Positions 15,011-64,000 of a stretch of 64,000 bases of DNA are shown here, in pieces. The stretch lies in assembly GCA_948567375.1 (NCBI GenBank), contig OX419761.1, positions 10,578,243 to 10,642,242 of the forward strand, in the 5' to 3' direction. The translations under genes and the position numbers were made by a program. Below the pieces are notes generated by a model. The model saw only the letters and a program-made list of their open reading frames with translations. It was not told the DNA's origin and did no database searches. The stretch comes from Lunularia cruciata. Taxonomy: Eukaryota > Streptophyta > Marchantiopsida > Lunulariales > Lunulariaceae. How positions within the stretch are numbered: the stretch's first letter is position 1; every line of letters begins with the position of its first letter.

Positions 15011-15149
15011 TGACACAAAGGGTACTTGAGGATTGGGCCATCAAACCATAGAGTCATAGCTCATATGACTAACACTACCAACACTTCATATTCAAATACA
15101 CAATCTTTTGATTATTAGGAATCAGATTTTGAAGAAGGAGCAATGATTC

Positions 15150-17349: not shown

Positions 17350-17397
17350 AGAGGACTTCACCTTGAGGACAAAGTGAAAACTTAGTCCGAGAGTAAA

Positions 17398-18082
17398 TGT
17401 AATACCTATTTGTGCAGGTGTGTGGTATTATGACATTTGGCTTAGTATAACAAGTACTTGAGAGATATTATTTATATAGATAAAGGATGGTTCTACATTA
17501 GTCATGATTAGCTGAATTTAGTCATAGCTAAGATAGAGGGAACCTTAATTTAGAGGAAGTAGAAAAGATGAGCACCACTATTTTGGATTTTAATGTGTTG
17601 ACTTGGTATTATTCCTAGGTGTTTGGCTTTGAGGAAAGAGTTGAGAACTCTTGGGCCCGTAAGCCTTTTTGTTTTGGATTCTTCTATAGTTGAAGGATAG
17701 CCCAAGTGAAGGAATCCTTGACTTAGTAGTTGGGTCAAGATAAGACCATATGCTTAGGGGAATATGCCCATGTGAATGGATATTCCTTTCTACTTTTTGA
17801 CTTTACTTGAATTTTAGCCTAGTTACTTGAGTTTCTATGGTAAATAATAACTTTAGTGCGTAATTGTTTTACAAGTATATAAACAAGGGGTGAGGAGGTT
17901 TTCATCATCCTTTCATTTGCAAATATCTCTCTCATTGAGTTCTCTAGTGAGCAATGTCTTGAGTTTGGAATGTTAGCCTTGGAGGAGTATGATGGAGTTG
18001 GGATTCTTTGCCTTCTTAGTCCATGATGCGCAACCATAATAACCATCAGAGGTTCATCCTGAGTGAGAGATAGGCCGACTGA
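17398..18082 (+). repeat. Gypsy A 3' LTR
   Basis: Begins TGTAATACC and ends near ggccgactga. It is uninterrupted and therefore shows the pre-insertion sequence of the 5' LTR. Directly beyond it lies copia B coding sequence rather than copia B LTR. Confidence 0.75.
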
Positions 18083-26049: not shown

Positions 26050-26103
<54 letters not shown>

Positions 26104-26330
26104 TGCAGGGATAGTCCCTCTGTCATCTGTCTAAAACTCCTGAATATAGACCTGCTTGACTTCATGAGTATTGACCACTCAAGATATCTAGTCACTTTAA
26201 TACTCAACCTTAGAAGAAGTGACTCAATATATATATATCCGTCCGCATGATACAGTAAGGAGTTTCCATCGGTCAAGTTTTGTTCTTGCTTTTGATCAGG
26301 CAAGTCACTTCTAGCAAGCCAAACATAACA
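25986..26330 (-). repeat. Copia E1 3' LTR, truncated
   Basis: Matches 29560-29879, with a (TA)n expansion at 26053-26100. The inner boundary is aaacataaca at 26330, followed by the complement of a purine tract (aactccacctttt). The outer roughly 90 bp seen in the other LTR are missing. Confidence 0.8.
26053..26100. repeat. (TA)n microsatellite inside the copia E1 LTR
   Basis: About 48 bp of AT dinucleotides at the place where the other LTR has only a short tatatata (29650-29660), so it expanded after insertion. Confidence 0.95.
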
Positions 26331-26359
26331 AACTCCACCTTTTGCTTGTATCCACCTTA

Positions 26360-28575
26360 TCATCCCAAAGAGCAACATTGAACATTGAGCAAGTTCATGC
26401 ATAACTTGAACTTCTCAACAAGAACAGGTTTAGTCAACATATCAGCTGCGTTTACCTCTGTGCCAATCTTTTGCAAATTGATTTCACCATTTGTCACAGC
26501 TGCTTCCCTGATAAAATGATGTCTCACATCAATATGCTTTGTCCTTGAATGATATACTTGATTCTTTGCCAAGTGAATAGCGCTTTGGTTATCACAAAAG
26601 AGTGTGGACTTCATATTAGGGAGTCCTATATCCTTGGCTAATGTTTGTAGCCATATTGCCTCTTTGGCAGCCTCAGTTGTTGCCATAAATTCTGCCTCTG
26701 TAGTAGAAAGAGCAATAGTAGATTGGAGAGTAGACTTCCAACTTACTGCACCACCAACAAGTGTAAAAACAAATCCGGTTGTAGACCTTCTCTTTGGCTA
26801 TAACCCTTTGCCACAAGCCTTGCTTTGTATCTATCTCCACCTGATTTTGGAAGTCCTTCCTTCCTCCGGAATATCCATCTGCAACCAATTGCCTTCTTTC
26901 CCATAGGCAAATTTTCAAGTCTCCAAGTTTGGTTTTTGGCCAAAGACTTCATCTCCTCTTCCATTGCACAATGCCACTTTTGACATTCTTGATCTTGTAT
27001 TGCCTGTTCATATGAAGAAGGCTCACCATTCTCCGTAAGAAGAGCATAAGGTACAAATGAATCATCAAATCTCTTTGGAGGCCTTCTATCCCTATTTGGA
27101 TACCTACGTTCATGAATCACTTCTGGGCTTTGCTCTTCTAATGGTTCACTTGGTAGATCTACATGAAGTGACATGTCTTCATTTCCAAGATCAATATCTA
27201 TCTTAACGAAATCTGACTGAATTTTTTTTCTCTTTTCTTTTGCTATAGTAATAGTCTTGATTGTACTAGTCTCATAAAAAACTACATCCCTAATCACAAC
27301 AAGACAACACCTGTCTGGATCCCACAATCTATATCCCTTCGTCTCCTTCTCATATCCCAAGAATATACATTTTCTAGATTTGGGATCTAACTTTGTCCTT
27401 TGTTCTTGTTGAATATGAACATAAGCTATGCATCCAAATACTCTAAGTGAAGAGTAATCAAAATTCCCACCTGTCCATTTTTCCTTAGGTGTTTTACACT
27501 CAATAGCAATAGAGGGAGAAATGTTTACCAAATGACAAGCCGTATTTATAGCTTCTGCCCAAAAAATCTTCTCCAATCCAGCGTTGCTTAACATACTTAT
27601 TGCTTTCTCCAAGAGTGTATGATTTATCCGCTCTGCCACACCATTTTGTTGAGGAGTATCCGGTATGGTAAAGTGATGAATTATCCCTTCACTCTTATAA
27701 TATCTATCAAACTCTCCAGATTTGTATTCTCCACCATTATCAGATCTCAAACACTTCACTTTCCTTCCAGTTTGTTTCTCAATCATCACCTTCCATTGTT
27801 TAAAGATAGAGAAGACCTCTGATTTTTGCTTCATGGTGTAGACCCATGCTCTCCTAGAGTAATCATCAACCAAAGACACAAAATATAATGCTCCAGATTT
27901 TGAAGCTATAGGTGCAGGGCCCCAAACATCAGAATGCACATAGTCAAAAATTCCCTTTGTGCAATGAACTCCTGTGTAAAAGCTTACCCTCCGTTGCTTT
28001 CCTATTACACAATGCTCACAGAATTTTAACTTACAACTTTTAAGGCCCTTCAGAAGTTGTTGCTTGGATAATTCACTTAGACCCCTTTCACTCATATGAC
28101 CCAAACGGAGGTGCCATAACTGAGTAAGATCTTCGGGATCTTCATTTTCAGAAATAGTACTTGCCACACCTCCAGTGATGGTCTCTCCAACAAGCTCATA
28201 AAGGTTTCCTATCTTCTTGCCCTTCATTACAACCAATGCTCCTTTTGATACCTTGAGTGTTCCATTTTTTGCTCCCCACCTCCAACCATTTGAGTCCAAA
28301 GTGCCTAGTGATATCAAATTCTTCCTTAACTCAGGAACATGCCTCACATCAGCAAGAGTCCTCACAATACCATCAAACATCTTAATGTGCATTGTACCAA
28401 TGCCAATAGCTTTACAAGCCATGTTGTTCCCCATTATTACAAATCCTCCATTGAATGATTTGTACTCATGAAACCACTCCTTATTTGGACACATATGGTA
28501 AGAGCAACCTGAGTCCAATATCCATGACTTCTCAAATTGATCTTTGTCTTGGTTAACACATAGGACATCATCCAC
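26360..28575 (-). pseudogene. pol: Copia E1 pol: protease, integrase, deleted RT, end of RNase H
   Basis: The frame 28575-26743 (610 codons) contains protease WILDSGCSYHMC, the zinc site (LRLGHMSERG and CEHCVIGKQ), the integrase core with YVHSDVWGP, CLRSDNGGEY and QQNGVAERIN (D, D, E), the block GCIAYVH to KKCIFLGYE-like, and the RT start WRLENLPMGKKAIGCRWIF to KARLVAKGYSQREG. The sequence then jumps to the late RNase H region (LQSTIALSTTEAEF in a shifted frame, then CDNQSAIHLAKN and SRTKHIDVRHHF at 26686-26360). About 1.3 kb including the RT active site is missing, by comparison with the normal copia arrangement. Closest in style to the plant Tnt1 group. Confidence 0.85.
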
Positions 28576-28588
28576 AACTCCAGATGAC

Positions 28589-29455
28589 TTAGCAACACTT
28601 GCTTGATCTGAAAGTTGACCTTGTTGGACTCAAGGCTCTTGTTGTTACAATCCTTCTTGAAATGTCCAACCTTCCCACAAATCCAGCACTTGCCTTTGAA
28701 ACCTCCAGTTCTAGACTTGGATCTTGATTTACTCCTGACCTGATCTCTCTCTCTCTTGTCCTTCCTCTGATAAATAGAGCCTCTGAATTTGTCTTTTCTT
28801 GGTTGGGTCTTTTTTGCATCTCATTGGACAATAATGCTGAAGTGACCTCCTCACAGTTTATATCATCCTTCCCATATAGAAGAGTTGTGACCAGATGCTC
28901 ATATGATGGAGAAAGTGAAGTTAATAACAACAATGCCTTATCCTCATCTTCTAACTTAACCTCTATGTTCATCAACTCACAAATTATTTTTTTGAAAGCA
29001 TTGAGGTGCTCCATAATACTCTGGCCTTCCTTCATCCTCAACATATACAACTTCTGTTTAAGAAACAGTCTATTTTTCAAAGACTTGGTCATATAAAGAT
29101 TCTCCAGTTTGGCCCATAGTTTTGGTGCAGATTCCTCATTCATAACATTGTATAGCAGTTCATCAGCAAGGTTCAACCTAATAGTGCTAATAGCTCCGAG
29201 ATCTGCATCTTCATCTTCCCCATCCTCATCACTTTTGTCCTCCTTTTTCTTCTTTAGTGCTCTATGTAGTCCTTGCTGGGCAAGAAGGTCCTTCATCTTC
29301 AGTTGCCAAAGTCCAAAATTGTTTTCCCCATCAAACTTCTCCACTGCAAATTTAGCATTTGATATGGATATCACCCCTGCCATTGCTTTGCTGTGGACTT
29401 GCTTCTGGACCCACTTCCCTGCACCCTCAGATCTCAAGACACTCTTAAGGACCAA
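28589..29455 (-). pseudogene. gag: Copia E1 gag
   Basis: Residues AGVISISNAKFAVEKFDG and NNFGLWQLKMKDLL are the N-terminal gag block; NLADELLYNVMNEESA and LLLLTSLSPSYEHLVT follow (UBN2-type capsid), with a Glu/Asp-rich insert (KSDEDGEDEDADLGA). The zinc knuckle CWICGKVGHFKKDC is encoded just downstream, but in a different frame from the capsid. The phase is set by a short (GA)n run at about 28740-28755. The reading frame opens at a non-ATG codon just inside the primer site; the first Met is near residue 25. Confidence 0.75.
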
Positions 29456-29459
29456 CTAT

Positions 29460-29471
29460 GCTCTGATACCA
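29460..29471 (-). promoter_or_regulatory. Copia E1 primer-binding site
   Basis: The minus strand reads TGGTATCAGAGC, complementary to initiator tRNA-Met, two bases from the LTR edge. Confidence 0.9.
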
Positions 29472-29473
29472 AT

Positions 29474-29879
29474 AGTTAGAAAATACAGTCCCAAGGGAAC
29501 TCTTCGCAATAGCACATCATAAGGCCCATTAAACATAAATCAGAGGACTAACAGGAAATAACTTGGTTCACTCCCTGTCCCGGAAGCTACCTCCACGGGC
29601 TGAGACAGGCTCACACCAACCTTCGAACCTTTATTTCCATTGCACATATGTATATATATACAAACACAGGGATAGTCCCTCTGTCATCTGTCTAAACTCC
29701 TGAATATAGACCTGCGTGACTTCATGAGTACTGACCACTCAAGATATCTAGTCACTTTAATACTCAACCTTAGAAGTGACTGAATATATATCCACATGAT
29801 ACAGTAAGGAGTTTCCATCAGTCAAGTTTTGCTCTTGCTCTTGATCAGGCAAGTCACTTATAGCAAGCCAAACATAACC
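29474..29879 (-). repeat. Copia E1 5' LTR
   Basis: 406 bp between the primer site and unique sequence. In minus orientation the first bases read GGTTATGTTTGGC where the 62292 copy reads TGTTATGTTTGGC, so the terminal base has mutated. Confidence 0.8.
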
Positions 29880-37664: not shown

Positions 37665-37797
37665 TAGTAACATAAATTTAGCTCCTGTGCAAACAAACAT
37701 AAAATTTAGCTCCCAAGGCATAGTAACAAAGATCTTTCTCTCAAGGCATACAAACATAAAATTTAGCTTCCATGGCATAGTAACACAAAATCTTGCT
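37665..37797. repeat. Short tandem repeat array, left half
   Basis: Three to four copies of a phrase of roughly 30-45 bp built around aacataaaatttagct and aaggcata. The array continues on the other side of the DNMT element at 47714-47885, so one array was split by that insertion. Confidence 0.7.
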
Positions 37798-37905
37798 TGT
37801 CGTGCGTATATACATCGCTACACAACATACATCGCTGTCAACATCATACACTATAAAAGCACAACTCACACATAAGTCATACATAGACTCTAAAGTGCCA
37901 CAATC
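37798..37905 (-). repeat. Terminal repeat segment B2 of the DNMT element
   Basis: 108 bp, identical to 38356-38463. In element orientation it follows A2 directly and ends at the target duplication with CGCACGACA. Confidence 0.9.
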
Positions 37906-38353
37906 AATCAGATTGCTTAACACTCTCAACTCAACTCAACTCAGATCAGTACTTGATCTGTCACTCTATAAACCGCCAACAACTGGGCACTGATTACAGT
38001 CAAGCCACACCCACTCAAGCATAGAGAATCCAGGTGACGCTCGCCGGCCTCTGTCCACCATAGCCAGGAACTCGAAGCCTCAACATCAGAGAAGTGAGCT
38101 CTCTGGAGCTCACTTCAAAACTATACCCCCTGGACTCGAGCTAGCCCTGAAACCCTAACGGTCCCGCTGACGGCACACTCGACGGTGCAAATGGTGCAAA
38201 GTGACGGTGGGCCCCACCGTGAAGTCAGTACCCTAAACACGAAATCTAACCGTCGGAAAGTAGTCCCTGAGAAACAGCTAGAATAACTCTAACTACCATC
38301 ACTGGAACTCTAGTGTCCGAGCATCTAGATGCAGAACTACAAATGGCGTGACA
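37906..38353 (-). repeat. Terminal repeat segment A2 of the DNMT element
   Basis: 448 bp, matching 47266-47713 with about six differences, five of them transitions. In element orientation it starts TGTCACGCC and is preceded by B1 and two bases (ac). Confidence 0.9.
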
Positions 38354-38355
38354 GT

Positions 38356-38463
38356 TGTCGTGCGTATATACATCGCTACACAACATACATCGCTGTCAAC
38401 ATCATACACTATAAAAGCACAACTCACACATAAGTCATACATAGACTCTAAAGTGCCACAATC
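38356..38463 (-). repeat. Terminal repeat segment B1 of the DNMT element
   Basis: 108 bp, identical to 37798-37905. In element orientation it follows a polypurine tract (ctaggggggc) that ends the internal region, the position where a 3' LTR would normally begin. Confidence 0.9.
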
Positions 38464-38629
38464 GCCCCCCTAGCTGACGGTTAGGTCCCTCTAACTCAAG
38501 ATAGCCATCTACTCTAAGTATATGGTATACCCTCTAATGGGCAAAGATCAGGAGGCCGGGTGCTATGGAGCCCCATCGTTAGTCGCCTGTCTGCAATCTA
38601 TACCATATAAAGAATGAACTAGCTATAGG

Positions 38630-39172
38630 TCAAATACATCTAGGACATAACCACTGTCCTTGAGGAACCACCATGAGGGGAGGAGTCATACATGCCATAT
38701 GCCATCCTCTCGAATAGCTATCACACACTAACATAGTAGCAACTCCACCAGAAGAGCCACATAACATACACCTCAAGCCTGCACGTACAAGTGCCAAGCT
38801 TGGGTCCATAGTACCATCAATGTTTGGAAGGTGGCATGGCGCACAATTGCGCACATGATCCTTCCAAACAACACCATCACGTCCTTCTAACACAAGGACT
38901 CCAGATGGCAAAACCTCACGCACTCTCAAGATAGTGCGGCCTGTAGAAACATCAAGTGTTGTCGGTGCTGTCTGCTGTAGATATACATAGTCGCCTGGAT
39001 GAAATCGACGGATCGAGGGTCTATAACCTCCTCCTCGAATGGTAGCATAGCGTAAAGTATCTCTATGCTGAGCAATCGCCAAGTTCTCAAAGGCCATCGG
39101 CATCACTCTCCAAAAGATCTCTGCCCGTTGAGAACATGCGCTCATCCATACATCGAGGTCATCCAAGTCCAA
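38630..39172 (-). CDS. Integrase C-terminal domain and PHD finger of the DNMT element
   Basis: 180 codons, the last coding block of the element and in the same frame as integrase, from which TGA (39220-39218) and TAA (39208-39206) separate it. Residues about 45-125 are the SH3-like integrase tail (FHPGDYVYLQQ, then TGRTILRVREVLPSGVL and DHVRNCAPCHLPN). Residues 132-179 form a PHD finger: C135-x2-C138, C150, H158, C161, W174, C176-x2-C179, with the usual PP and W landmarks. The fourth ligand, expected three residues after C150, is Tyr153 (codon tat at 38716-38714), so zinc site two is probably damaged. PHD fingers usually read histone H3 tails. In chromoviruses a chromodomain occupies this position, so a role in choosing integration sites is a reasonable inference. 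Confidence 0.8.
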   Translation of the reverse strand: MDLDDLDVWMSACSQRAEIFWRVMPMAFENLAIAQHRDTLRYATIRGGGYRPSIRRFHPGDYVYLQQTAPTTLDVSTGRTILRVREVLPSGVLVLEGRDGVVWKDHVRNCAPCHLPNIDGTMDPSLALVRAGLRCMLCGSSGGVATMLVCDSYSRGWHMACMTPPLMVVPQGQWLCPRCI

Positions 39173-39217
39173 AACTACAGTAGCATCTCGACGAATGGCT
39201 GCAGGTTAATCTGGATC

Positions 39218-39760
39218 TCATCCATAGAGTAGAAAGTATGGAGAGAAGGATGCTAAGGAGGCTTGCCGGCTGAACCGATAGCCCATGGCCAACCAAGGTA
39301 ACTGGAGATCCCAATCTCCCAAGTGGCCTCTCTGCAAACCATACTTTCGCAATCCTCTCTTCACAGTCTGAACCACTCTCTCTGCTAAGCCATCTGCCTC
39401 AGGGTGATCTCGGGATGTAGTACAATGATCAATCAAAGCCTTGTCACACAAGACCTGAAACTCTCCCAAGAACTCTGTACCCTGATCAGTCAAAACCTCA
39501 GCTTGTGCACCAAAATGACTAAGAACTCGATCCAGGAACGAGTAAGTTGTCCCTTCACTAGACTTGTCAGGAAGTGCCACCAACTCAATCCACTTGGAGA
39601 AGTGCTCCACCATCACCAAAACATACCGATGATGTCTCACAGTCAGCGGTAAAGGTCCGGCAAAGTCCAAACTCCAACGGTAACCCAATCCCATGATAGG
39701 TAATGGGTGTAACTGTGGCGTAGGAGCATTGAATGATGCTCTAACTCGGTCACAAACCAC
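39218..39760 (-). CDS. DDE integrase core of the DNMT element
   Basis: RNase H/retroviral integrase fold with all three acidic residues visible: Asp in WSLDFAGPLPL, Asp in VLTDQGTEFLGEF, Glu in DHPEADGLAERVVQTVK. The zinc-binding HHCC domain begins upstream, with HAHEELGHFGVKRTY at the end of the RNase H block and VVCDRV here, across a TAG at 39793-39791. It would join element DNA to the chromosome with a short staggered cut, in agreement with the 4-bp duplication. The TGA at its end replaces the Arg codon of the widely conserved gypsy Y-G-R-D-P motif. Confidence 0.85.
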   Translation of the reverse strand: MVCDRVRASFNAPTPQLHPLPIMGLGYRWSLDFAGPLPLTVRHHRYVLVMVEHFSKWIELVALPDKSSEGTTYSFLDRVLSHFGAQAEVLTDQGTEFLGEFQVLCDKALIDHCTTSRDHPEADGLAERVVQTVKRGLRKYGLQRGHLGDWDLQLPWLAMGYRFSRQASLASFSPYFLLYG

Positions 39761-39790
39761 ACATCTGGCAACAAACTGCTGTACCTCGGT

Positions 39791-40495
39791 CTACATACCG
39801 CACCACCAATAATGACTCTGGAGTAAGCTATATGTACGCTTTACTCCAAAATGTCCTAGCTCCTCATGAGCATGACGGACCAACTGTGGTCTCTGTGATG
39901 GAAGTGGTACTACTCGCACTCTACCATCCTCCCATACACGCAAAAGGTGTCTACTCTCCAATCTGAACCGTCTGGCTCGCTGAAGAACACGGTCTCTCTC
40001 CTTGGCCCCAACTGTGCCACCCACAACACCAGTGCGAAGATAGTCCATCACTAAGACATCATCATGAATGTCTCGCTGAACTGTACCAATATCTTCACTC
40101 TCTGGATTTGTGACCTCAATAACTCCTCCTGTATGCGCTGAGAGAGATACCACCAATGTCTCTGCAAATATACACAGAAAGGCTGATGCATGCCAACCTG
40201 GCACCATCTCCTCATCTGTCTCACCATGCCAACGTGCTCTGGTCTGATCCTGCTGGCTGGGACATGGGTTTCTACTCAACCCATCTGCATCACGGTTCAC
40301 CACTCCAGGTCTGTGAACAACCGTGAAATCATACTCCTGTAAAATCAGAGCCCATCGTGCAAGCTTCCCTGAAAGCTTGTCGGACTCCATCAACCACTTC
40401 AGCGGCTGATGATCAGTGATGAGAGTGAAGGGGTTACCAAATAGGTAACATCGGAAATGTGCTACTGCCCAAACTGTTGCCAAGCACTCCCTCAT
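39791..40495 (-). CDS. RNase H end, linker and integrase zinc finger of the DNMT element
   Basis: The frame starts within RNase H (ECLATVWAVAHFRCYLFG, LITDHQPLKWL, VVHRPGVVNRDADGLSR, supplying the catalytic Glu and Asp residues). A linker follows, then HEELGHFGVKRTYSLLQ of the integrase HHCC finger. It is shifted relative to the RT frame at about 40490, where a short indel disrupts the Y-E-G-E-C-L-A region. It degrades the RNA strand of the RNA-DNA hybrid. Confidence 0.8.
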   Translation of the reverse strand: MRECLATVWAVAHFRCYLFGNPFTLITDHQPLKWLMESDKLSGKLARWALILQEYDFTVVHRPGVVNRDADGLSRNPCPSQQDQTRARWHGETDEEMVPGWHASAFLCIFAETLVVSLSAHTGGVIEVTNPESEDIGTVQRDIHDDVLVMDYLRTGVVGGTVGAKERDRVLQRARRFRLESRHLLRVWEDGRVRVVPLPSQRPQLVRHAHEELGHFGVKRTYSLLQSHYWWCGM

Positions 40496-41741
40496 ATGAA
40501 CTATACTTCACCTCCGCTGAATTGTTGGAGCGACTAGCATAGGCCACCACAAACTCCTTCTCCTCATCATCATGCTGGGTGAGCACCGCTCCAAGCCCCA
40601 ACATACTCCAATCAGTGTGAACCTGAAATGGTCGTCCCCTGATCGGTCTCCTCAAAATAGGAGCAGATGTCAACCTCTCCTTGAGCTCTACAAAAGCTCT
40701 CTCCTGCTCATCTCCCCAACACCACTCTTGTGTAAGCTTGGTCAGCTTCGTCAAGGCCTTGGCAATGGCACTAAATCCTCTAACATAGTGGCGATAGAAG
40801 TTTGCCAACCCAAGGAATGCTCGCACTCTGCTCACATCCGTAGGCCGAGGAATACGTGCAATAGCCTCCACCTTGGTCTGCTGAACACCAAGTCCTCCGG
40901 GGTAGATAGTGTGACCCAAATACTCAACCTGCTCATGGAAGAACCTACACTTCCCAAGATGTAATTTGAGTCCATGAGATCTCAACCTCTCAAACACCTC
41001 CAACAACTGTCTCTCATGCTCCTCCACAGTAGTGCTATACACCAAAATGTCATCAATATAGCACCGAGCAAAATCCAGTCCAGCTAGGATCCTATCCATG
41101 ACCCTCTGGAACTCAGCAGGAGCATTCTTCAACCCAAATGGTAAGAATCTCCACTGATATAACACATCCTTGCCGTGAGGATCAATAGCCCAAAATGCTG
41201 TCTTGGACTTATCTTCCTCTCTGATCGGCAACTGATGATATCCCGCTCGAAGATCCAAAGTACTGAAGACCTTTGCATGCCCAATCGCATCAAAAATCTC
41301 CTCCGGTGTAGGCATGGCATATCGATCAGCCCTGGTCTGTCGGTTGATAGGACGGTAATCTCCACACATCCGCCTATCTGTATAGTTGCCATGCATATCC
41401 TTCTTGGCTGGCATCACTGTCGCTGATGCATACTCTCCATGTGAAATCTCCACCAAACCAGCCTCAAAAAGGTCACTACTCCGGCTCTGAATCAATGTCC
41501 TCTCCATCTCACTATATCGATAAGGACGTCGGAAAACAGGTGTGTCGCTAGTCAGCTCAATCCGTATACCAGGTCCCTTCAGAGCACCCAAATCCTTCAT
41601 ACTGAAGGCAAAACAACTCGTGTGACTCCTCAAGAACCTCCAAACCCTCCGTCTTTCCTCTCCAGTAAGCTTGGGTCCAAGATCTGGCTCCCAAGTATCC
41701 TCTGTAACTGTAGTAGGAGTGGAAGACGTACTGACTGGCTG
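40434..41741 (-). CDS. pol: Reverse transcriptase of the DNMT element
   Basis: Read from just after a TAG (41744-41742). It has the pre-RT block LTGEERRRVWRFLRSH, RT motifs GDYRPINRQTRADRYAMP, FSTLDLRAGYHQLPI, WRFLPFGLKNAPAEFQRVM and the catalytic CYIDDILVYS (Y-x-D-D intact), then GLKLHLGKCRFF, VEYLGHTI and the thumb RAFLGLANFYRHYV. RNase H starts at FQVHTDWSMLGLGAVLTQ. The frame runs out at 40434 after the frameshift near 40490. A normal full-length gypsy RT. The segment between the methyltransferase and RT (about 41930-41745) changes frame. Confidence 0.9.
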   Translation of the reverse strand, partial: QPVSTSSTPTTVTEDTWEPDLGPKLTGEERRRVWRFLRSHTSCFAFSMKDLGALKGPGIRIELTSDTPVFRRPYRYSEMERTLIQSRSSDLFEAGLVEISHGEYASATVMPAKKDMHGNYTDRRMCGDYRPINRQTRADRYAMPTPEEIFDAIGHAKVFSTLDLRAGYHQLPIREEDKSKTAFWAIDPHGKDVLYQWRFLPFGLKNAPAEFQRVMDRILAGLDFARCYIDDILVYSTTVEEHERQLLEVFERLRSHGLKLHLGKCRFFHEQVEYLGHTIYPGGLGVQQTKVEAIARIPRPTDVSRVRAFLGLANFYRHYVRGFSAIAKALTKLTKLTQEWCWGDEQERAFVELKERLTSAPILRRPIRGRPFQVHTDWSMLGLGAVLTQHDDEEKEFVVAYASRSNNSAEVKYSSYEGVLGNSLGSSTFPMLPIW

Positions 41742-41928
41742 CTACACTGGGCCCTTGGGAGCAATAGTGTCATGCTCCCGACCACTAGAGGTCCCAACCT
41801 CTGTGTGAAAAACTCCCTCCACTCTGGCTGCAAGCTCCATACGTCCTCTGGCTGCATCCCATGTGGACCAAGGGTGTAATCCAAGTAGCCCACACTCACC
41901 TGGATGGACTCCAAGTAGACCTCTCTCC

Positions 41929-42231
41929 CTAGTAGCTACTGGATGTGTCCCAAGAATACCATGTCCACTCGGTCCATCGCCCCCAGCATGCCTGAATCGT
42001 CTCGATAGGCACAGGGCTCACAAGTGTCCGAGTGGTGATGCCTATCAAGCGCATCCTACGCTGCTCTGCCAAACCAAGGCTCACAATCCAGGTCAAACAG
42101 TTCAGGTCCATAGCCTGACCTAACACCTGACGCCTAGATGCCTCTGACACTACTGGAACAGCGGTAATACCGGTGCAAAAACCCATCACCCGCTCTCTCT
42201 CATCAGCATTGGGCTCCACCAACTGCTGTAA
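41929..42231 (-). CDS. C-terminal motifs IX-X of the element's DNA methyltransferase
   Basis: Continues the protease-methyltransferase frame directly after TAG 42234-42232. NADERERVMGFCTG resembles motif IX (the E-R-x-x-x-M-G-F element that packs against the target recognition domain). RRQVLGQAMDLNCLTWIV resembles motif X, which closes the S-adenosylmethionine site. The block then ends at TAG 41931-41929. Without it the upstream protein would lack part of the cofactor pocket. Confidence 0.7.
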   Translation of the reverse strand, partial: LQQLVEPNADERERVMGFCTGITAVPVVSEASRRQVLGQAMDLNCLTWIVSLGLAEQRRMRLIGITTRTLVSPVPIETIQACWGRWTEWTWYSWDTSSSY

Positions 42232-44367
42232 CTATGAGTCCCAAACAAGTCCAGGTCCTCCCTCTCGAAAAGCATGAGAGCCTGGGAAACTCATGAGTGT
42301 GAGAAATGCAGCTCTAGGCTGTCCAACTAGATTCACCACTGCCATAGGTGACCTATCAGCCACTACGATTGTCTGAGACTGACGCCCAACATCCAAGATA
42401 TCATCAACAAGAATGTGGTCCAGTCGCTGAATCCCATCATAAGCACGCTGTAGAACCTCTCTGGGTAAGAGGTTTGTCCACCAAAGACGAAGACGATGAG
42501 CCCTTGATCCCACTCTGGCTGCATCTAACAATACAATAGGTCCCATCCAAGAATGGACCTGATGTGTACTCGCCACCACTCTAGTGTGAGAATCACCCAT
42601 CAATGGAACGTTCTCCAAAAGGTAAGCTGGAGAAACAGACTGATGAACCTGGAGATGTCGTAGTATCTGTAACATCTCCCAAAACACACCAGAACGAGGA
42701 TCCTGAAGACCCAAACCGCGGCCTGTACGTGTATGTCCCTGACATGGCCATCCAGAAATCACCAAGTGAATAGGCCCATGTCTCTCTAGGTCATGCGCCC
42801 CCAATAAGGAAATGTCTCCTGGTAAGGCCTTCTGGTAACCTCTGACTGCTGACATCGGTAATAACTCCGGATACCGATAGGCCAAGTGTGCCACATGATG
42901 TAGAGAGACTCGCCTAGCAGTCTCATCTCTCTCTACATACAAGTACCTCTGTACTCGGATACCCGCCTGTAACACCGCAGCTAGTCCGGTGCTGATCCCA
43001 CCAAACAACTCTAATAGACATATCCCCTCTACTGGATACTGCCAAGCAATGAGTGTGGTATCCAGAGGTGTCAAAGCAATCGCCTCTGGAAGCTCATCCT
43101 CACACTCATCCCCTGATGGTACGAAGGCTCCACTCCAAGCCTGCTGCACCAACTGATCTGCATGCTGCTGCAATGCCTCCTCTGAACTCCACAATGGAAC
43201 ATCCAAGGTGGATGGAACAATCCCACTCGTACTCCATAGCCGAGTGATCTCCTCTGGTATTGGATTATCCTCTGCATGGGCGTTCCCCTCCAACAAGTCA
43301 CCAGGCCAAGTAACTGCACCGCTGAAAGCCAAAACTGATGCTGCCATGGTCCCAGACTGTAGTAAGCCAAGACTGCCACTACTAAAGCGTACTGGTAGGC
43401 GACATACCCATCCCTCACCAGATTGCCAACCAGGTCTATAAGAGGCTGTCTCCTCCCAATAGTCAATACTGAAACCCATAGGGTATAACACTGCTCCCCC
43501 AACTAGCACATCATATGACTCAGCTATCGTCGCAATAGCCTGAGCTCTCACCACTGAGCTATCAGTCGGATGACCAGGCTGAACCTGGACAACAAGCTCC
43601 CCACGTGTGATGTACTGTGTTGAACCACCACCTAGAGATGTCTGGATCTGAAATGGACACTTCTCCACATCGGTCTTCCGTAACTCCAGACCAACAACTG
43701 CAGCCTTCCCCAACATAAGGGGCTGCGCACCAGAGTCTAACAAGACTCTCTGTGGTGTATAGACCTTCCCTGAAGGTCCCACCAAACGAAAGATCCCCCT
43801 CTGGTTATCCAATAGGACAACACCAGGTGTAAACCGCGCTCTCTCAAAGGCCGGTCTAGTTGGCAACTCCTCCAGTCTAGCCGCTGCTGCCTGCCATAAA
43901 CCACTGGTCGCTGAACGGATCCCATGCTCCTCAACCAAGTCAGCTCCACTACCAACCACCTCTGCTCTAGTAGTAGGAACTGCACCATCCCTACTCTCAC
44001 ACAACGTGGCAGCCAACCGGAACACTGGGGCTGGGTCAACTCCCAATGTAAACATGTCATTGGCTGAAAATAAAGGATACCGCATAATCAGCTGAGCCGC
44101 CCCCAACATCATGCTAGACTCAGTCTGTGTAGTAGCAGGTGGCTGACTAGCAGGTACTCCATCAGGTACTCCATCACCACCTACCACACCTGCACTGGGA
44201 TGTCTAGGAACCATGGATGTCTTCTGCAATGCCTCAAATAGCGTGAAAGACTGGGGAAGTCTGACCTGTCTCCCAACCTCTCCTCTCTGTGGGTCCAACT
44301 CCACTGATGCTCCTCTAGGCTCTAGAGCACGTACTGCACTCCTAGTCACTGTTGCAGATGCATCCAC
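42232..44367 (-). CDS. Aspartic protease fused to a DNMT3-like C5 cytosine methyltransferase
   Basis: 711 codons in frame with gag. Protease: VLLDSGAQPLML (D-S-G at residues 211-213) and YDVLVGGAVLYPMGF (about 285-300). Methyltransferase: motif I LLELFGGISTGLAAVLQAG (about 451-469), motif II YLYVERDE (about 476-482), motif IV LVISGWPCQG with the catalytic Cys542 (codon 42744-42742), motif VI LLENVP (Glu585), motif VIII SRAHRLRLWWTN (621-632), then a target recognition region. Motifs are in canonical order, unlike plant DRM enzymes, which are permuted. The LFGGISTG and RAHRLRLWW motifs are closest to DNMT3. It would methylate cytosine C5 in DNA. It lies between protease and RT within pol. Frame opening at 44367 is a GTG after TAG 44370-44368; readthrough from gag is more likely than initiation. 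Confidence 0.88.
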   Translation of the reverse strand: MDASATVTRSAVRALEPRGASVELDPQRGEVGRQVRLPQSFTLFEALQKTSMVPRHPSAGVVGGDGVPDGVPASQPPATTQTESSMMLGAAQLIMRYPLFSANDMFTLGVDPAPVFRLAATLCESRDGAVPTTRAEVVGSGADLVEEHGIRSATSGLWQAAAARLEELPTRPAFERARFTPGVVLLDNQRGIFRLVGPSGKVYTPQRVLLDSGAQPLMLGKAAVVGLELRKTDVEKCPFQIQTSLGGGSTQYITRGELVVQVQPGHPTDSSVVRAQAIATIAESYDVLVGGAVLYPMGFSIDYWEETASYRPGWQSGEGWVCRLPVRFSSGSLGLLQSGTMAASVLAFSGAVTWPGDLLEGNAHAEDNPIPEEITRLWSTSGIVPSTLDVPLWSSEEALQQHADQLVQQAWSGAFVPSGDECEDELPEAIALTPLDTTLIAWQYPVEGICLLELFGGISTGLAAVLQAGIRVQRYLYVERDETARRVSLHHVAHLAYRYPELLPMSAVRGYQKALPGDISLLGAHDLERHGPIHLVISGWPCQGHTRTGRGLGLQDPRSGVFWEMLQILRHLQVHQSVSPAYLLENVPLMGDSHTRVVASTHQVHSWMGPIVLLDAARVGSRAHRLRLWWTNLLPREVLQRAYDGIQRLDHILVDDILDVGRQSQTIVVADRSPMAVVNLVGQPRAAFLTLMSFPGSHAFREGGPGLVWDS

Positions 44368-44370
44368 CTA

Positions 44371-44580
44371 TGCTGCTCCGCACATGAAGTCCAAAGCATC
44401 TCTATCACCAGCATATGAGGTGGAAGCCTCAGCACCTGAATCTGATCTCCTATGAGCAATAGCCATACTAGCCAATCTCTGCTCCAACTGCTCAATCCGA
44501 GTAGCCATAGCTGTGTTAGAAGTAAGGGCAGGTACTGCACCCCTACTAGGTGTAGATCCTCTACCACCACCTCTACCACC
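44371..44580 (-). other. In-frame gag-protease spacer of the DNMT element
   Basis: Open between the TGA ending gag (44583-44581) and the TAG before the protease frame (44370-44368), all in one frame. It encodes a Gly-rich start and MATRIEQLEQRLASMAIAHR, a short predicted coiled coil. Its conservation of frame suggests an originally continuous gag-pol reading frame. Confidence 0.6.
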
Positions 44581-45972
44581 TCATCCTCCATGAACTGGAG
44601 CTCCTCTACTACCTGCCATAGCAGCCCTACCACTCCGTAACTCCGGGTGTAGGTCAAAACACCAGTCACTAGTGTGACCAAATCTGTGGCGATGCTCACA
44701 CTGCCTCTGTGCTGGTTGTGATGCACCAGAGGTATCAGGTCCGCTGCCCTGAGTACACTCTCTCCTATGGTGAGGTCCACCACAAGTCCAACAAGCAACA
44801 CCACCACTCACTGGCTGCTGCTGACCCGAAAATGAGGGTAAGGGTCTAACTCCACTAGGCCCTCCACTCGCTCCATAGGATCTGGGCTGTCCACCCTGTC
44901 CTCGAAAACCAACTGGGCGTGGTGCACTCTGCTGCACTCTAGAAGAAGTCACAACCGTGGATGAGGTCTCCCTACCAAATCCAGATGTCACCACTCTCTC
45001 CTCCACCATGTTGAGCTCAATACGCTTAGCCAAACCAAAGACTACTGCCAAAGTGGGCGAAGTAGCCTGCAACATTGTAGCATCACGAACTCTACGTCGC
45101 AACTCCCTGTCCAGTATCCCATACCAAAACTGGACTGCCTGGGCCTCAGTAACTCCCTGAGTGAAACTGATCAGCCGCCTCATGCGAGTGTATGCCTCGC
45201 GTAGGCTCTCTCCAGCCTTCCGCTGGAACTCCTGCAAGCTCCTCAGCTTGTCAGTCCGCACTCCCTGGTAGTTCTGCCTCAAACATAGGAAGAACTCCAC
45301 CATGGGGTTAAACCCCGGTACCACACCACCTCCTGCAGCGGTACCTCCACTCGTAGTAGCACTATCTCCAGCTAGTGCACCTCCACTAGCTCCACCAACA
45401 CTACTCGAGCTAGAACTCGTAGGTACAGCCGACCTACTCCTGGCCACCGAACCTGAAGTGATGGAGACATAGTGTGGAGACCAATACTGTCTCCATAACT
45501 CAATCTCCTCCAAATGAGCTCTCCTGAACTCATGGTAGTCGTCCATCGGTGGACCCTCCAAGTGCTGAAACAACCCCTTCCATGCCATGAAGGGTGTGAA
45601 CAAAGTCGGGTTCCGCATCTGCTGCAGATCACACCAACTATCAAACTCCTGGATGAAGTCATCCAACTCAATGGTACCCACAGTACCAGAGTAACGCCTA
45701 GGGCCTTTGGAGGCCCCATAAATCTTGTCCATGTCCCACAACAACGGTGCGGACACACCAAGTGCACTCTCAACTGAATCAGCTCTTGTGTCGAACTCCA
45801 ATTCAGAGTCAATCTCCTCCCTCACTAGGACCTGAGATACATGCTGATACCGAGTACCACTCCGAGTAAACCCACTGCGTACTGCAGGGCTAACTCCTCT
45901 GGAATCTCCAAAGAACTCCGTCGTGACAAAGTAACCACACCAACAAACCCGAACCACCAACTGCAACAGCAA
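44581..45972 (-). CDS. gag: Gag of the DNMT element
   Basis: 463 codons opening with TTG; the first Met is residue 81 (MDKIYGASKG, codon 45732-45730), a likelier start. Capsid region: PRRYSGTVGTIELDDFIQEF, then a Ser/Gly/Ala-rich linker (about 180-220) and MVEFFLCLRQNYQGV to EAYTRMRRLISFTQGV (Retrotrans_gag-like). Two nucleic-acid-binding knuckles follow near the C-terminus: CWTCGGPHHRREC (residues 394-406) and CEHRHRFGHTSDWC (425-438), the second with Arg where the second Cys should be. Forms the particle in which reverse transcription occurs. Ends at TGA 44583-44581. Confidence 0.8.
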   Translation of the reverse strand: MLLQLVVRVCWCGYFVTTEFFGDSRGVSPAVRSGFTRSGTRYQHVSQVLVREEIDSELEFDTRADSVESALGVSAPLLWDMDKIYGASKGPRRYSGTVGTIELDDFIQEFDSWCDLQQMRNPTLFTPFMAWKGLFQHLEGPPMDDYHEFRRAHLEEIELWRQYWSPHYVSITSGSVARSRSAVPTSSSSSSVGGASGGALAGDSATTSGGTAAGGGVVPGFNPMVEFFLCLRQNYQGVRTDKLRSLQEFQRKAGESLREAYTRMRRLISFTQGVTEAQAVQFWYGILDRELRRRVRDATMLQATSPTLAVVFGLAKRIELNMVEERVVTSGFGRETSSTVVTSSRVQQSAPRPVGFRGQGGQPRSYGASGGPSGVRPLPSFSGQQQPVSGGVACWTCGGPHHRRECTQGSGPDTSGASQPAQRQCEHRHRFGHTSDWCFDLHPELRSGRAAMAGSRGAPVHGG

Positions 45973-47265
45973 GTCGCAACCGCAAGTGCCCCACCAAGTG
46001 CCAACACCAACTAGACACCACCCACTAATGTAACTCTAACCGAGATAACTACACTAGGGGAAGGGCAACCTGTAACCTGCCATCATAACACGCACTCTCA
46101 CGGTCTGTAGGTCATCACTTCCTGCCTCACCGGAAAGAAACAAAGGTAGTCTGACTGGTCATCACTCCAGCCTCACCACCGAGAGCACACCAGAGCACGA
46201 ACGCTCAAAAGTCAAGGCACCTCACACAAACGTGGTGCACAAACAGGAAGCAGAGAATGGAGGGGATCCAATCACAAGAAATCTAAACAAAAACCCTCCA
46301 TCTCATAACACAACACGGGACTGACTCTGCCACCATTTGGCATTTGACATAAGAGTAGTTCGTATCTAAGTCCTAAGCTACCAGGATCACCAAGAATGGG
46401 ATCAAACTGCCTCTCCTAGCCAAAGCTACATGTGTATAGATAACAGTGGCACAGTCACTATGACAACAAGTGAGGGTGGACCAGTTGGCTAGGGCACCAG
46501 TCTAGGAACAAGAGATCTAGGGGTCAAACCCTGTTGCGCACAATCTAGCAAGAAAGGCAGATTTTGCCAACCAATGACCAAGATCTACACTAAACTAGCT
46601 AGCCTCACGCCAGCAAGCTGGCTTGCTGGCCCTTCTAGGCCTTCATAGCATCTCATAGCCCACAGCCCTATGCCTCGAAGCCTCTAAATGCCGAAATTCA
46701 GCCAAATGAGGCCTTTCTTGTTGCCACTTTGAACCTCCTCCAAAATTGGCGAAACTTCTCCAAATCTGCGAAACTCCTCCAAACTAGCGAAACTTCTCCA
46801 AATCTGGCCAAACAGCAAAACTCCTCCAATTCTGGCCCAAAAATCTGACATAAAATCTGACGTAAACCCTAAAGATGGATGTCCGCCAAATCTCCCGCTA
46901 ACTTTCCACTCGAGCCAAATTGACAAAACGGGTTTTTCCAAATCACAATTTCATGAGAAGAGCTTTCCAACTCCACCTTCAATTTCACTTTCTGAGCCCA
47001 ACTCGCAGCAAATTGGTCCTGCCTTCACCTCTTGAGCTCAAAATCACAACACTGCTAAAAAATTGCTCCTTCTTTGCTCAAAATTTGGCCAGCGCTTCTG
47101 CACACCGTCCGCCTAACTGCCAAATTTGCATCAACTACACGAGCTTCTGCACACTAGGGAAACACAGAACCTGAATCGAGCTACCACGATCCACCGAGCT
47201 TGGAGATACCACCAACACTCAACGTTCCTGCACCCGATTTCCCCCTGACTTCACTTCTCTGATGT
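45973..47265 (-). other. Leader of the DNMT element between terminal repeat A1 and gag
   Basis: About 1.3 kb, mostly non-coding. Immediately inside A1 the element strand reads attacatcagagaag. The core atcagag is shared with the initiator-Met primer site tggtatcagagc, but the leading TGG is absent, so a primer site is only suggested. A short tandem of aaactcctcc/aaacttctcc phrases is at 46745-46830. A tRNA-like stretch on the opposite strand is listed separately. Confidence 0.5.
46475..46540 (+). other. tRNA-like sequence (degenerate, SINE-head type)
   Basis: On the plus strand, antisense to the element: agttggctaggg resembles an A box and gggtcaaaccc resembles a B box at the expected spacing, with caccagtcta between, as in many tRNA-derived SINE heads. 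The T loop is one base short and no acceptor stem forms, so it is not a functional tRNA gene. Confidence 0.35.
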
Positions 47266-47713
47266 AATCAGATTGCTTAACACTCTCAACTCAACTCAAC
47301 TCAGATCAGTACTTGATCTGTCACTCTATAAACCGCCAACAACTGGGCACTGATTACAGTCAAGCCACACCCACTCAAGCATAGAGAATCCAGGTGACGC
47401 TCGCCGGCCTCTGTCCACCATAGCCAGGAACTCGAAGGCTCAACATCAGAGAAGTGAGCTCTCTGGAGCTCACTTCAAAACTATACCCCCTGGACTCGAG
47501 CTAGCCCTGAAACCCTAACGGTCCCGCTGACGGCACACTCGACGGTGCAAATGGTGCAAAGTGACGGTGGGCCCCACTGTGAAGTCAGTACCCCGAACAC
47601 AAAATCTAACCGTCGGAAAGTAGTCCCTGAGAAACAGCTAGAATAACTCTAACTACCATCACTGGAACTCTAGTGTCCGAGCATCTAGATGCGGAACTAC
47701 AAATGGCGTGACA
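47266..47713 (-). repeat. Terminal repeat segment A1 of the DNMT element
   Basis: 448 bp, the 5' end in element orientation, starting TGTCACGCC next to the target duplication tgct. It lacks the 108-bp B segment that follows A2 at the other end. Confidence 0.9.
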
Positions 47714-47885
47714 TGCTCTTGAGGCATACAAACAAATTTTTTTTCTCCTGAGGCATACAAACATAAAATTTAGCTTCCAAGGCATAATGAAAAAATTTCT
47801 TGCTCCCAAGGCATATGAACACAAAATTTTGCTCCCAAGGCATACTGTAACACACAAACCTCTGAGTTCGTTGTAACATAAACTC
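47714..47885. repeat. Short tandem repeat array, right half
   Basis: Four to five phrases of about 35-45 bp with ctcctgaggcata, aacataaaatttagc and cccaaggcat, continuing the array of 37665-37797. Confidence 0.7.
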
Positions 47886-62727: not shown

Positions 62728-63800
<1,073 letters not shown>

Positions 63801-64000
63801 TGATGTTTTATGTGTTACCCAAGACAAAGATCAATTTGAGGAGTCATGGATATTGGACTCAGGTTGCTCTTACCATATGTGTCAAAATAAGGAGTGGTTT
63901 TATGAGTACAAACCATTCAATGAAGGATCTGTAATAATGGGAGAACAACATGGCTTGTAAAGCTATTGGCATTGTACAGTATACATTCAGATGTTTGATG
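63801..64000 (+). pseudogene. pol: Copia E2 protease start
   Basis: ESWMDIGLRL-type and LDSGCSYHMC coding (63850-63885, partly in shifted frames) corresponds to the D-S-G protease of copia E1, followed by NKEWFYEYKPFNE. An indel near 63940 changes frame. The window ends here. Confidence 0.65.

What the first reader, a model, noticed from the sequence alone, without database searches (positions are those of the whole stretch)
41929..44367. DNA cytosine methyltransferase embedded in a gypsy polyprotein between protease and RT
The frame following the protease D-S-G motif contains C5-methyltransferase motifs I (LFGGISTG), IV (GWPCQG, catalytic Cys codon at 42744-42742), VI (ENVP), VIII (RAHRLRLWW), IX-like and X-like in canonical order, then reading moves into RT. 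The order rules out a permuted DRM enzyme and the motif style is closest to DNMT3. Retrotransposon-encoded DNMTs are published for charophytes and dinoflagellates, so the principle is established; whether this lineage and plant are described I cannot tell. A transposon that writes the host's silencing mark could be self-silencing in order to persist, or could mark its own cDNA.
Basis: partly seen in the sequence, partly recalled or inferred. Interest (0 to 1): 0.88.

Follow-up and report, generated by a model that had tools for sequence, protein, structure and literature searches.

The report
Retrotransposon carrying its own DNA methyltransferase
A land-plant jumping gene of the gypsy type, present in thousands of copies in this genome, carries a DNMT3-like enzyme of the kind that writes DNA methylation marks, apparently made together with its particle-shell proteins, so a genomic parasite may write the mark its host uses to silence it.

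Summary
Confirmed. Window 37798-47713 (-) is a 9,916-bp Ty3/gypsy-type element with a DNMT3-type cytosine methyltransferase between protease and RT (Pfam 3.7e-6; PDB DNMT3A 7.5e-10; profile 8e-22). This copy is dead (nonsense codons, frameshifts), but the family is large: a catalytic-motif pattern occurs 2,970 times in the 566-Mb genome, 11 of 12 copies picked by RT carry the DNMT in place, and relatives occur in Marchantia, Calypogeia, Sphagnum, Closterium and a desert-crust contig. New anatomy: (1) split direct repeats (A1-ORFs-B1-A2-B2) with a DDE integrase, TG..CA ends and 4-bp target duplications; (2) the DNMT lies on the Gag side of one in-frame UAG in a tobamovirus-type readthrough context (UAG-CAR-YYA; 40 of 47 copies, and a relative with 50% DNMT identity), so it is probably made at Gag level; (3) a PHD finger ends the integrase; (4) in some distant relatives the DNMT sits between RNase H and integrase. 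The kind is known: de Mendoza et al. 2018 described KnitGypsy-Dnmt3 in a charophyte. Long-term purifying selection is clear; dN/dS within this genome is inconclusive. Best mechanism, inferred: methylation of the element's own cDNA inside particles.

The parts
37798..47713 (-). whole element, 9,916 bp, ends TGTC...GACA
   Evidence: repeat structure and flanks; same layout in 14 of 20 fetched genomic copies
47714..47717 (-). target-site duplication AGCA, 5' side of the element
   Evidence: 9 of 14 complete genomic copies have an exact 4-bp duplication by a strict rule
37794..37797 (-). target-site duplication AGCA, 3' side of the element
47266..47713 (-). split direct repeat A1 (448 nt)
   Evidence: 442 of 448 identical to A2; 5 of the 6 differences lie at CpG
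38356..38463 (-). split direct repeat B1
   Evidence: identical to B2
37906..38353 (-). split direct repeat A2; joined to B1 as GACA-AC-TGTC
37798..37905 (-). split direct repeat B2
38464..38473 (-). polypurine-tract-like CTAGGGGGGC directly before B1
   Evidence: the same motif in L078 at 6937
44581..45732 (-). Gag with zinc knuckles (motif read by eye), interrupted by TGA at 44583-44581 at its end; candidate start Met at 45732
   Evidence: 65% identical to Marchantia P0042; Met; stop positions
43060..44367 (-). aspartic protease region, DSG at about 43737-43729, preceded by a TAG lesion at 44370-44368
   Evidence: 58% identical to Marchantia
42046..43059 (-). DNMT3-type C5-methyltransferase: motif I 43017-42985, IV 42753-42736, VI 42615-42604, VIII 42504-42478, IX/X within 42231-42046; TAG lesion 42234-42232
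   Evidence: motif coordinates read off
41736..41744 (-). UAG CAG CCA: TMV-type leaky-stop context between Gag-PR-DNMT and RT
   Evidence: 40 of 47 genomic copies (window included) keep UAG-CAR-YYA; L078 has UAG CAA UCA
40434..41741 (-). reverse transcriptase and start of RNase H
   Evidence: RVT_1 5.9e-32
39791..40507 (-). RNase H and integrase H2C2 zinc finger (different frame from the RT: lesion)
   Evidence: frames
39218..39790 (-). integrase core (rve, DDE)
   Evidence: 2.7e-13; a TAG lies just before it
38630..39205 (-). integrase C-terminal part and PHD finger (about 38630-38770)
   Evidence: PF00628 1.6e-8; also in L078, P0030, P0031, P0123, P0126, P0128

Best explanation
It is a decayed copy of a large family of gypsy-type retrotransposons that carries a DNMT3-type DNA cytosine methyltransferase as a regular part of the element. 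Shown by sequence: the order Gag-PR-DNMT | UAG-CAR-YYA | RT-RH-IN-PHD; DDE-type insertion with 4-bp duplications; split direct repeats whose internal B1-A2 junction equals the two element ends plus 2 nt; the DNMT in 11 of 12 copies picked by RT, and conserved across lineages. Inferred: most ribosomes stop at the UAG, so Gag-PR-DNMT is the abundant product and a minority reads through into RT-IN. Protease then frees DNMT inside the particle, where it methylates (probably at CG) the element's double-stranded cDNA before integrase, helped by the PHD finger in choosing chromatin, inserts it. New copies would arrive already marked, which host maintenance enzymes would keep. This would protect the cDNA or limit harm to the host and so aid long-term persistence. 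My confidence: identity about 0.98, leaky-stop layout about 0.85, cDNA methylation in particles about 0.45, benefit by camouflage or self-restraint about 0.3.
For: DNMT3 affinity: Pfam 3.7e-6, PDB phmmer, profile E 8e-22 for DNMT3A against 2e-10 for 4onj ('DNA methyltransferase'; that it is a DRM is recalled) and 3.3e-6 for entries named DRM2. AlphaFold model of relative P0048 (pLDDT 81): all 50 rows shown are DNMT3-family entries (3A, 3B, 3C and complexes with 3L), TMt up to 0.84. Leaky stop: window UAG CAG CCA and L078 UAG CAA UCA, the only stop between two long same-frame ORFs in L078; 40 of 47 copies UAG+CARYYA, 44 of 47 UAG; of 2,068 TAGs in the window 3 have this context, this one included. 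In 18 of 22 proteins scored as Gag-PR-DNMT the chain ends 65-166 aa after the DNMT match, before RT. Insertion: exact TSDs in 9 of 14 complete copies. Ubiquity: 2,970 motif matches, reversed control 0; 11 of 12 RT-picked copies carry DNMT. Constraint: 84 of 85 element DNMTs with motif IV keep Cys (two rows corrected by eye); window vs L078 pS 0.73, pN 0.35. Trace of CG methylation on this copy: 5 of 6 A1/A2 differences at CpG, P=2.5e-5. SymbioDIRS DNMTs methylate CG de novo in yeast (PMC5890265 section 10).
Against: No activity, expression or methylome data here. The KnitGypsy DNMT gave no methylation in yeast, which its authors call inconclusive. Within this genome dN/dS is 0.49, but of five control frames two give 0.42 (the others 0.60, 0.75, 0.84), and RT (0.38) is more constrained than DNMT (0.51). 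CpG decay of the repeats is equally expected from host methylation, and 14 other copies show 86 of 359 differences as CpG transitions, a smaller share. In P0120, P0121 and P0039 the DNMT is joined to RT, and in P0123, P0126 and P0128 it lies between RNase H and IN, so Gag-level dosage is not universal; some Marchantia and Sphagnum gene models (P0008, P0011, P0033, P0034, P0043, P0045) also join DNMT to RT, perhaps by predicted splicing, which I did not check. Readthrough itself was not measured.
Confidence: 0.55

Rival explanations
1. The DNMT is a passenger, captured once and carried along, with no role in the element's cycle.
For: Within-genome dN/dS of 0.49 does not beat two of five control frames (0.42); singleton and shared variants in DNMT differ only modestly (N/S 46/19 vs 14/13).
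Against: At saturated synonymous distance motifs I-VIII keep 50% amino-acid identity, above Gag (31%) and PR (38%) though below RT (69%); catalytic Cys in 84 of 85; retained in 11 of 12 RT-picked copies; stop-free Gag-PR-DNMT frames persist, in 8 of the 36 best-scored copies (of 21,980 candidates).
Confidence: 0.1
2. The enzyme acts in trans on the host: it adds methylation broadly (decoy or saturation of silencing) rather than on its own cDNA.
For: About 3,000 copies give large potential dosage; de Mendoza et al. discuss such an effect for Symbiodinium.
Against: DNMT is fused to Gag-PR, which favours particle confinement; no ADD or PWWP domain was found in the Gag-PR-DNMT ORFs scanned by Pfam (window, P0042, P0046, L078); the K. 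nitens methylome is land-plant-like despite its elements.
Confidence: 0.2
3. The domain has lost DNA methylation and serves as an RNA methyltransferase or as a structural nucleic-acid-binding part of the particle.
For: No DNA methylation seen for KnitGypsy-Dnmt3 in yeast; some relatives have E for P in motif IV (WECQ).
Against: tRNA-methyltransferase (DNMT2-type) entries score far worse than DNMT3 (best 0.023 vs 7.5e-10; 4.7e-5 vs 8e-22); catalytic Cys, EN and AHR residues are invariant or nearly so in a 25-row alignment.
Confidence: 0.15
4. Chance nesting: a host DNMT3 gene piece and a gypsy element happen to lie together, or were joined by assembly error.
Against: DNMT, stop and RT lie in the same arrangement in the fetched copies (20 of 20 loci hold DNMT, stop region and RT in order); Marchantia and Calypogeia proteins join protease and DNMT; a separate assembly, L078, has the same layout.
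Confidence: 0.01

Closest known systems
KnitGypsy-Dnmt3 of Klebsormidium nitens (de Mendoza et al. 2018, PMC5890265; abstract, sections 9-11 and passages read)
   Same: Gypsy-type domains, intronless unpermuted Dnmt3-type DNMT inside the polyprotein, DIRS-like repeat structure (Fig. 4 legend), purifying selection reported (Ka/Ks < 0.2).
   Different: Described in the Pol ORF of a charophyte as an independent acquisition in the K. nitens lineage. Here a bryophyte-type family with about 3,000 copies, DNMT before a TMV-type leaky UAG, PHD finger and 4-bp TSDs. The main text has no hit for readthrough, gag, PHD or Marchantia; its figures were not seen. I could not compare sequences: no Klebsormidium-named record was in the hit lists.
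SymbioDIRS-Dnmt3 and SymbioLINE-Dnmt of Symbiodinium (same paper, passages)
   Same: Retrotransposon-borne DNMT; varying domain order in Pol in one family.
   Different: Tyrosine recombinase (DIRS) or LINE machinery, unrelated pol lineages.
PAT-like/DIRS elements with split direct repeats
   Same: A1-ORFs-B1-A2-B2 repeat layout (layout of PAT elements recalled; the term seen only in a search listing).
   Different: They use a tyrosine recombinase; this family has an rve integrase, TG..CA ends and 4-bp duplications.
TMV-type (Type I) leaky stop, UAG-CAR-YYA (PMC2754532, passages read)
   Same: UAG followed by CAR YYA, two same-frame ORFs.
   Different: There it is a tobamovirus replicase; here the junction between Gag-PR-DNMT and RT of a retrotransposon. 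A similar use in the soybean element SIRE1 is recalled, not read.
DNMT3A/DNMT3B
   Same: Catalytic domain sequence and predicted fold.
   Different: No ADD or PWWP found; fused to Gag and protease; 19-23% identity in the fold alignments of the relative P0048.

Membership tests
C5-cytosine methyltransferase, DNMT3 type | Motifs I, IV (PCQ), VI (ENV), VIII, IX/X in canonical order | tested here: met
   in this copy motifs IX/X lie after a TAG
C5-cytosine methyltransferase, DNMT3 type | Closer to DNMT3 than to DRM, DNMT2 or bacterial Dcm | tested here: met
   MET1/CMT and plant DNMT3 sequences were not at hand for a tree
C5-cytosine methyltransferase, DNMT3 type | De novo 5mC activity | not testable with these tools
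   no assay
DRM (rearranged) | Permuted motif order (VI-X before I-V; recalled) | tested here: not met
   order I-IV-VI-VIII-X
Ty3/gypsy retrotransposon | PR-RT-RH-IN order with rve integrase after RT | tested here: met
Ty3/gypsy retrotransposon | TG..CA ends and short fixed target duplication | tested here: met
   AGCA in window; 9 of 14 complete copies exact
Ty3/gypsy retrotransposon | Plain LTRs at both ends | tested here: not met
   A1...B1-A2-B2 split repeats in 14 of 20 copies; B1-A2-B2 in 18 of 20
DIRS/PAT tyrosine-recombinase elements | Split direct repeats | tested here: met
DIRS/PAT tyrosine-recombinase elements | Tyrosine recombinase, no target duplication | tested here: not met
   rve found, no recombinase family listed in Pfam scans; 4-bp duplications
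Chromoviruses | Chromodomain at the integrase C-terminus | tested here: not met
   PHD finger instead
KnitGypsy-Dnmt3 | Gypsy pol, Dnmt3 in polyprotein, DIRS-like repeats | tested here: met
   against the description in PMC5890265
KnitGypsy-Dnmt3 | Common descent with the K. nitens elements | tested here: inconclusive
   no K. nitens-named sequence among hits; Closterium relatives were found
TMV-type readthrough | UAG-CAR-YYA between same-frame ORFs | tested here: met
   readthrough itself not measured

The most novel reading that the evidence does not exclude
An old, streptophyte-wide lineage of retrotransposons makes a DNMT3 as a Gag-level particle enzyme, writes 5mC on its own cDNA before integration and pairs this writer with a chromatin reader (PHD) on its integrase. 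With thousands of copies per genome in at least one land plant, such transposon-encoded DNMTs would be a real, overlooked source of de novo methylation in bryophytes and charophytes.
Probability: 0.3. Interest if true: 0.88.

Novelty: new member of a known kind. Interest (0 to 1): 0.64.

Why it matters
Retrotransposon-borne DNMTs were described from one charophyte and from dinoflagellates. Here the same kind is a major, multi-thousand-copy component of a bryophyte-like genome, with relatives in liverworts, a moss genus and another charophyte, so it is not confined to K. nitens. The layout turns the open question of what the DNMT is for into testable predictions: Gag-level stoichiometry through a leaky stop, DNMT in particles, methylated cDNA. 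It also means that counts of 'DNMT3 genes' and methylome studies in bryophytes must separate host from transposon enzymes, and it gives a DDE-integrase element with split repeats, a combination useful for understanding how such repeats arise.

Tried and rejected
Searches of viral contigs: the window domain found nothing; the alignment A2 found 77 loci. The one with the lowest E-value is 36% identical over query residues 47-188; some others reach higher identity over stretches of 34-60 residues. They look like ordinary Dcm-type genes of phages or bacteria; I did not open them, so this is inference. In genome contigs 7 loci matched; only L078 (50% over residues 31-368) is the element; the other 6 are Streptomyces and Saccharothrix records with weak matches.

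Within-genome selection test: singleton against shared variants, pairwise dN/dS, neutral simulations (means 0.77 and 0.85) and frame controls. The simulations suggest constraint, but frame +1 and one reverse frame gave 0.42, below the true frame (the other three controls: 0.60, 0.75, 0.84), so I do not claim it. N/S of shared variants was lower than of singletons for Gag (0.93 vs 3.43) and DNMT (1.08 vs 2.42), hardly for RT (1.50 vs 1.63), not for PR (1.40 vs 1.18). No branch-by-branch analysis was made.

Literature on PHD in integrases and on DNMT-carrying transposons: of nine searches only PMC5890265 appeared, by title and abstract, as a paper on DNMT-encoding retrotransposons; most listed papers were not opened and the library lacks most subscription papers, so absence from print is not shown. 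The Ectocarpus paper (PMC12477816, passages) reports a DNA methyltransferase domain in a Sola1 DNA transposon, predicted to make N4-methylcytosine or N6-methyladenine: not this kind. In PMC9033089 (passages) I saw no such element.

Seven contigs of 60-85 Mb (lengths), an eighth (C8) reaching at least 63.9 Mb (a match position), and the DNMT tree position next to Calypogeia and Marchantia suggest a liverwort; this is inference.

A DNMT tree with plant MET1, CMT, DRM and DNMT3 could not be made: no such sequences at hand. The only outgroup was a human DNMT3A fragment with a long branch; 44 of 59 rows that passed the coverage rule were used there, 15 near-duplicates, fragments or spliced models being left out.
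Full report
Observation. On the minus strand of the window an open frame runs from 44367 to 42232. It holds an aspartic protease motif and then C5-methyltransferase motifs I, IV, VI and VIII in canonical order, with motifs IX and X after a TAG in the same frame. Pfam DNA_methylase matches at 3.7e-6, RT, RNase H and rve integrase follow downstream, and a PHD finger (1.6e-8) ends the integrase part. Against solved structures the best match is DNMT3A at 7.5e-10, with HaeIII at 1.7e-4 and DRM2 at 0.04. With a 15-row profile the values are 8e-22 for DNMT3A, 2e-10 for 4onj ('DNA methyltransferase'; that this is a DRM is recalled) and 3.3e-6 for entries named DRM2. An AlphaFold model of a relative (P0048, pLDDT 81) matches DNMT3-family entries in all 50 rows shown. 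The order rules out a permuted DRM.

Element. Two repeats are split in the manner of PAT/DIRS elements: A1 at the 5' end, then the genes, then B1-A2-B2. The ends are TGTC...GACA with a 4-bp duplication AGCA. The element sits in a short host tandem repeat visible on both sides. The internal B1-A2 junction is the right end, two bases, then the left end (GACA-AC-TGTC). The same arrangement occurs in L078 (GACA-GC-TGTC), and a polypurine-tract-like CTAGGGGGG precedes B1 in both. Twenty genomic copies were fetched from one chromosome, the first 20 listed there with exactly one mismatch to the motif-IV pattern. Of these, 14 show the full A1-B1-A2-B2 layout and 18 show B1-A2-B2 (L108 and L109 are identical; L103 was cut by the fetched range); 9 of the 14 have an exact 4-bp duplication by a strict rule. 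By eye, 16 of the 20 show the junction with a two-base spacer, single-base changes in the flanking tetramers allowed. So this is a DDE-integrase element with split direct repeats. My reading, which is inference: the B1-A2 junction serves as template for both ends, and the two extra bases are those an integrase trims.

The leaky stop. In the window the DNMT tail and the RT share a frame and are separated by UAG CAG CCA (41744-41736). L078, a 9,285-bp contig with a 127-bp terminal overlap filed under a cyanobacterial bin (AVDCRST; that this means desert crust is recalled), has a stop-free Gag-PR-DNMT frame across the overlap, then one UAG CAA UCA, then a stop-free RT-RH-IN-PHD frame of 1,047 aa in the same frame. 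Its DNMT is 50% identical to the window's over motifs I-VIII. Both fit UAG-CAR-YYA, the context essential for tobamovirus readthrough, for which 32% was measured for TMV in a plant reporter assay (PMC2754532, passages). In the window 3 of 2,068 TAGs on both strands have this context, this one included. Of 47 genomic copies (window included) 44 keep UAG and 40 keep UAG-CAR-YYA. Of 22 proteins scored as Gag-PR-DNMT, 18 end 65-166 aa after the DNMT match, before RT; the other 4 end within 3 residues of the match. The DNMT therefore lies on the Gag side of a probable recoding site. Against generality: P0120, P0121, P0039 and some annotated gene models (P0008, P0011, P0033, P0034, P0043, P0045) join DNMT to RT; the latter may be predicted splicing, unchecked. 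Readthrough itself was not measured.

Copy number. A degenerate 32-base pattern of motif IV with up to 3 mismatches occurs 2,970 times in the 565.8-Mb genome, and 0 times for the reversed control. At full length this would be about 29 Mb or 5% of the genome (my arithmetic). An RT pattern occurs 5,085 times; it may include other families. Among zero-mismatch RT hits on C1 up to 33.4 Mb, 14 of 31 had no partner in the DNMT places listed (my count); 12 of these 14 were fetched, and 11 of the 12 carry DNMT at the expected place at 95-98% identity, 1 does not. Of the 36 best-scored copies of the whole Gag-PR-DNMT (of 21,980 candidates), 8 have no stop in the match; the stops in the others are TAG or TGA with one TAA, as expected from decay of CAG and CGA. 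Of the 47 aligned copies 8 have neither stop nor frameshift from motif I to X; all 47 keep the motif-IV Cys, but 39 of them had been selected by that motif. L109 (identical to L108) and L085 (the window itself) were dropped before these counts. The window copy is dead: TGA 44583, TAG 44370, TAG 42234, a shift near 42010, a shift near 40500, and stops at 39793, 39220 and 39208.

Age and methylation trace. A1 and A2 of the window differ at 6 of 448 sites, 5 of them at CpG (40 of 448 positions are CpG in either copy; P=2.5e-5). In 14 other complete copies 359 of 6,197 sites differ, 86 of them transitions at CpG, with 8 to 76 differences per copy. None of the 15 is a very fresh insertion. The CpG excess in the window copy points to CG methylation of that copy; it does not show who did it.

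Relatives. Three protein searches (41, 90 and 37 hits at E <= 1e-3; in the last two only the candidates sharing most words were scored) found the family in records named Marchantia, Calypogeia, Sphagnum and Closterium and in many unnamed sequences. Of 133 sequences scanned, 87 matched a motif-IV pattern that leaves the catalytic position free; after setting aside two bacterial-type rows and correcting two misread rows by eye (P0022, P0028), 84 of 85 element DNMTs have Cys and one (P0023) has Tyr; the 46 without a match, many of them fragments, were not judged. The DNMT tree puts the window with Calypogeia, Marchantia and others at 100/100 (13 rows), apart from an L078-type group. The RT tree agrees for the rows it holds (window with Marchantia 99/99, L078 next 90/95). 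In P0123, P0126 and P0128 the DNMT lies between RNase H and integrase, and all three have the PHD finger. These and three similar rows group weakly on the DNMT tree (85/42), and the three form a 100/100 RT group. So the domain has changed place, or been captured again, while the PHD-bearing integrase stayed.

Selection. Window against L078: synonymous sites saturated (pS 0.73) while pN is 0.35 for DNMT, 0.26 for RT, 0.52 for Gag; the motif I-VIII part is more conserved than Gag and protease, less than RT. This is long-term purifying selection. Within the genome dN/dS is 0.49 over 1,081 pairs, below neutral simulations (means 0.77 and 0.85, lowest 0.68 and 0.70) but not below two of five control frames (0.42 each), so that test is inconclusive, as expected when most differences arise after insertion.

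How it works. Shown: anatomy, insertion type, conserved coding, conserved stop context, ubiquity. Inferred: Gag-level production, packaging, release by protease, methylation of cDNA, chromatin choice by PHD. Trans effects on the host methylome remain possible given the copy number.

What is known. de Mendoza et al. 2018 (PMC5890265; abstract, sections 9, 10, 11 and passages) described KnitGypsy-Dnmt3: gypsy domains, DIRS-like repeats, Dnmt3 in the Pol ORF, Ka/Ks below 0.2, no activity in yeast (inconclusive), interpreted as an acquisition in the K. nitens lineage. The present element is of that kind. Not found in the parts of that paper I saw or in the listings of nine library searches: the bryophyte-type multi-thousand-copy family, the leaky-stop layout with DNMT on the Gag side, the PHD finger, 4-bp duplications with split repeats, and the alternative DNMT position in relatives. 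Whether K. nitens elements share these could not be tested, because no K. nitens-named sequence was among the hits.

Noticed in passing
L078 (CADCWO010000201.1): A complete plant-type retrotransposon is binned in a cyanobacterial MAG of the genome collection: most likely misbinned eukaryotic DNA.
   Followed up: partly
P0123, P0126, P0128 (also P0031, P0127, P0129): Related PHD-integrase elements with the DNMT between RNase H and integrase (or directly before integrase); P0031 also has a G-patch.
   Followed up: partly
P0031, P0036, P0037, P0039, P0040, P0120, P0121, P0123, P0125, P0126, P0128, P0129: Motif IV reads W/P/F-E-C instead of W-P-C: the otherwise conserved proline before the catalytic Cys is Glu.
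   Followed up: no
L107:9284-10000 (given orientation): B-A-B is followed after 2-3 bases by the start of another A repeat, as if two elements were joined head to tail at a circle-like junction.
   Followed up: no
window 37678-37797 and 47713-47862: The element is inserted in a short tandem repeat (spacing 29 bp beside its 5' end) present on both flanks.
   Followed up: no
window 11051-18075: Another gypsy element with 89.5% identical LTR-like repeats (11051-11673, 17456-18075).
   Followed up: no
window 26083-29878: A copia-type element with 89% identical terminal repeats (26083-26329, 29646-29878); a related piece with a long GA-type repeat lies at 63284-63960.
   Followed up: no
window 1419-3617 (+): A 732-aa open frame, possibly a host gene exon; not searched.
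   Followed up: no
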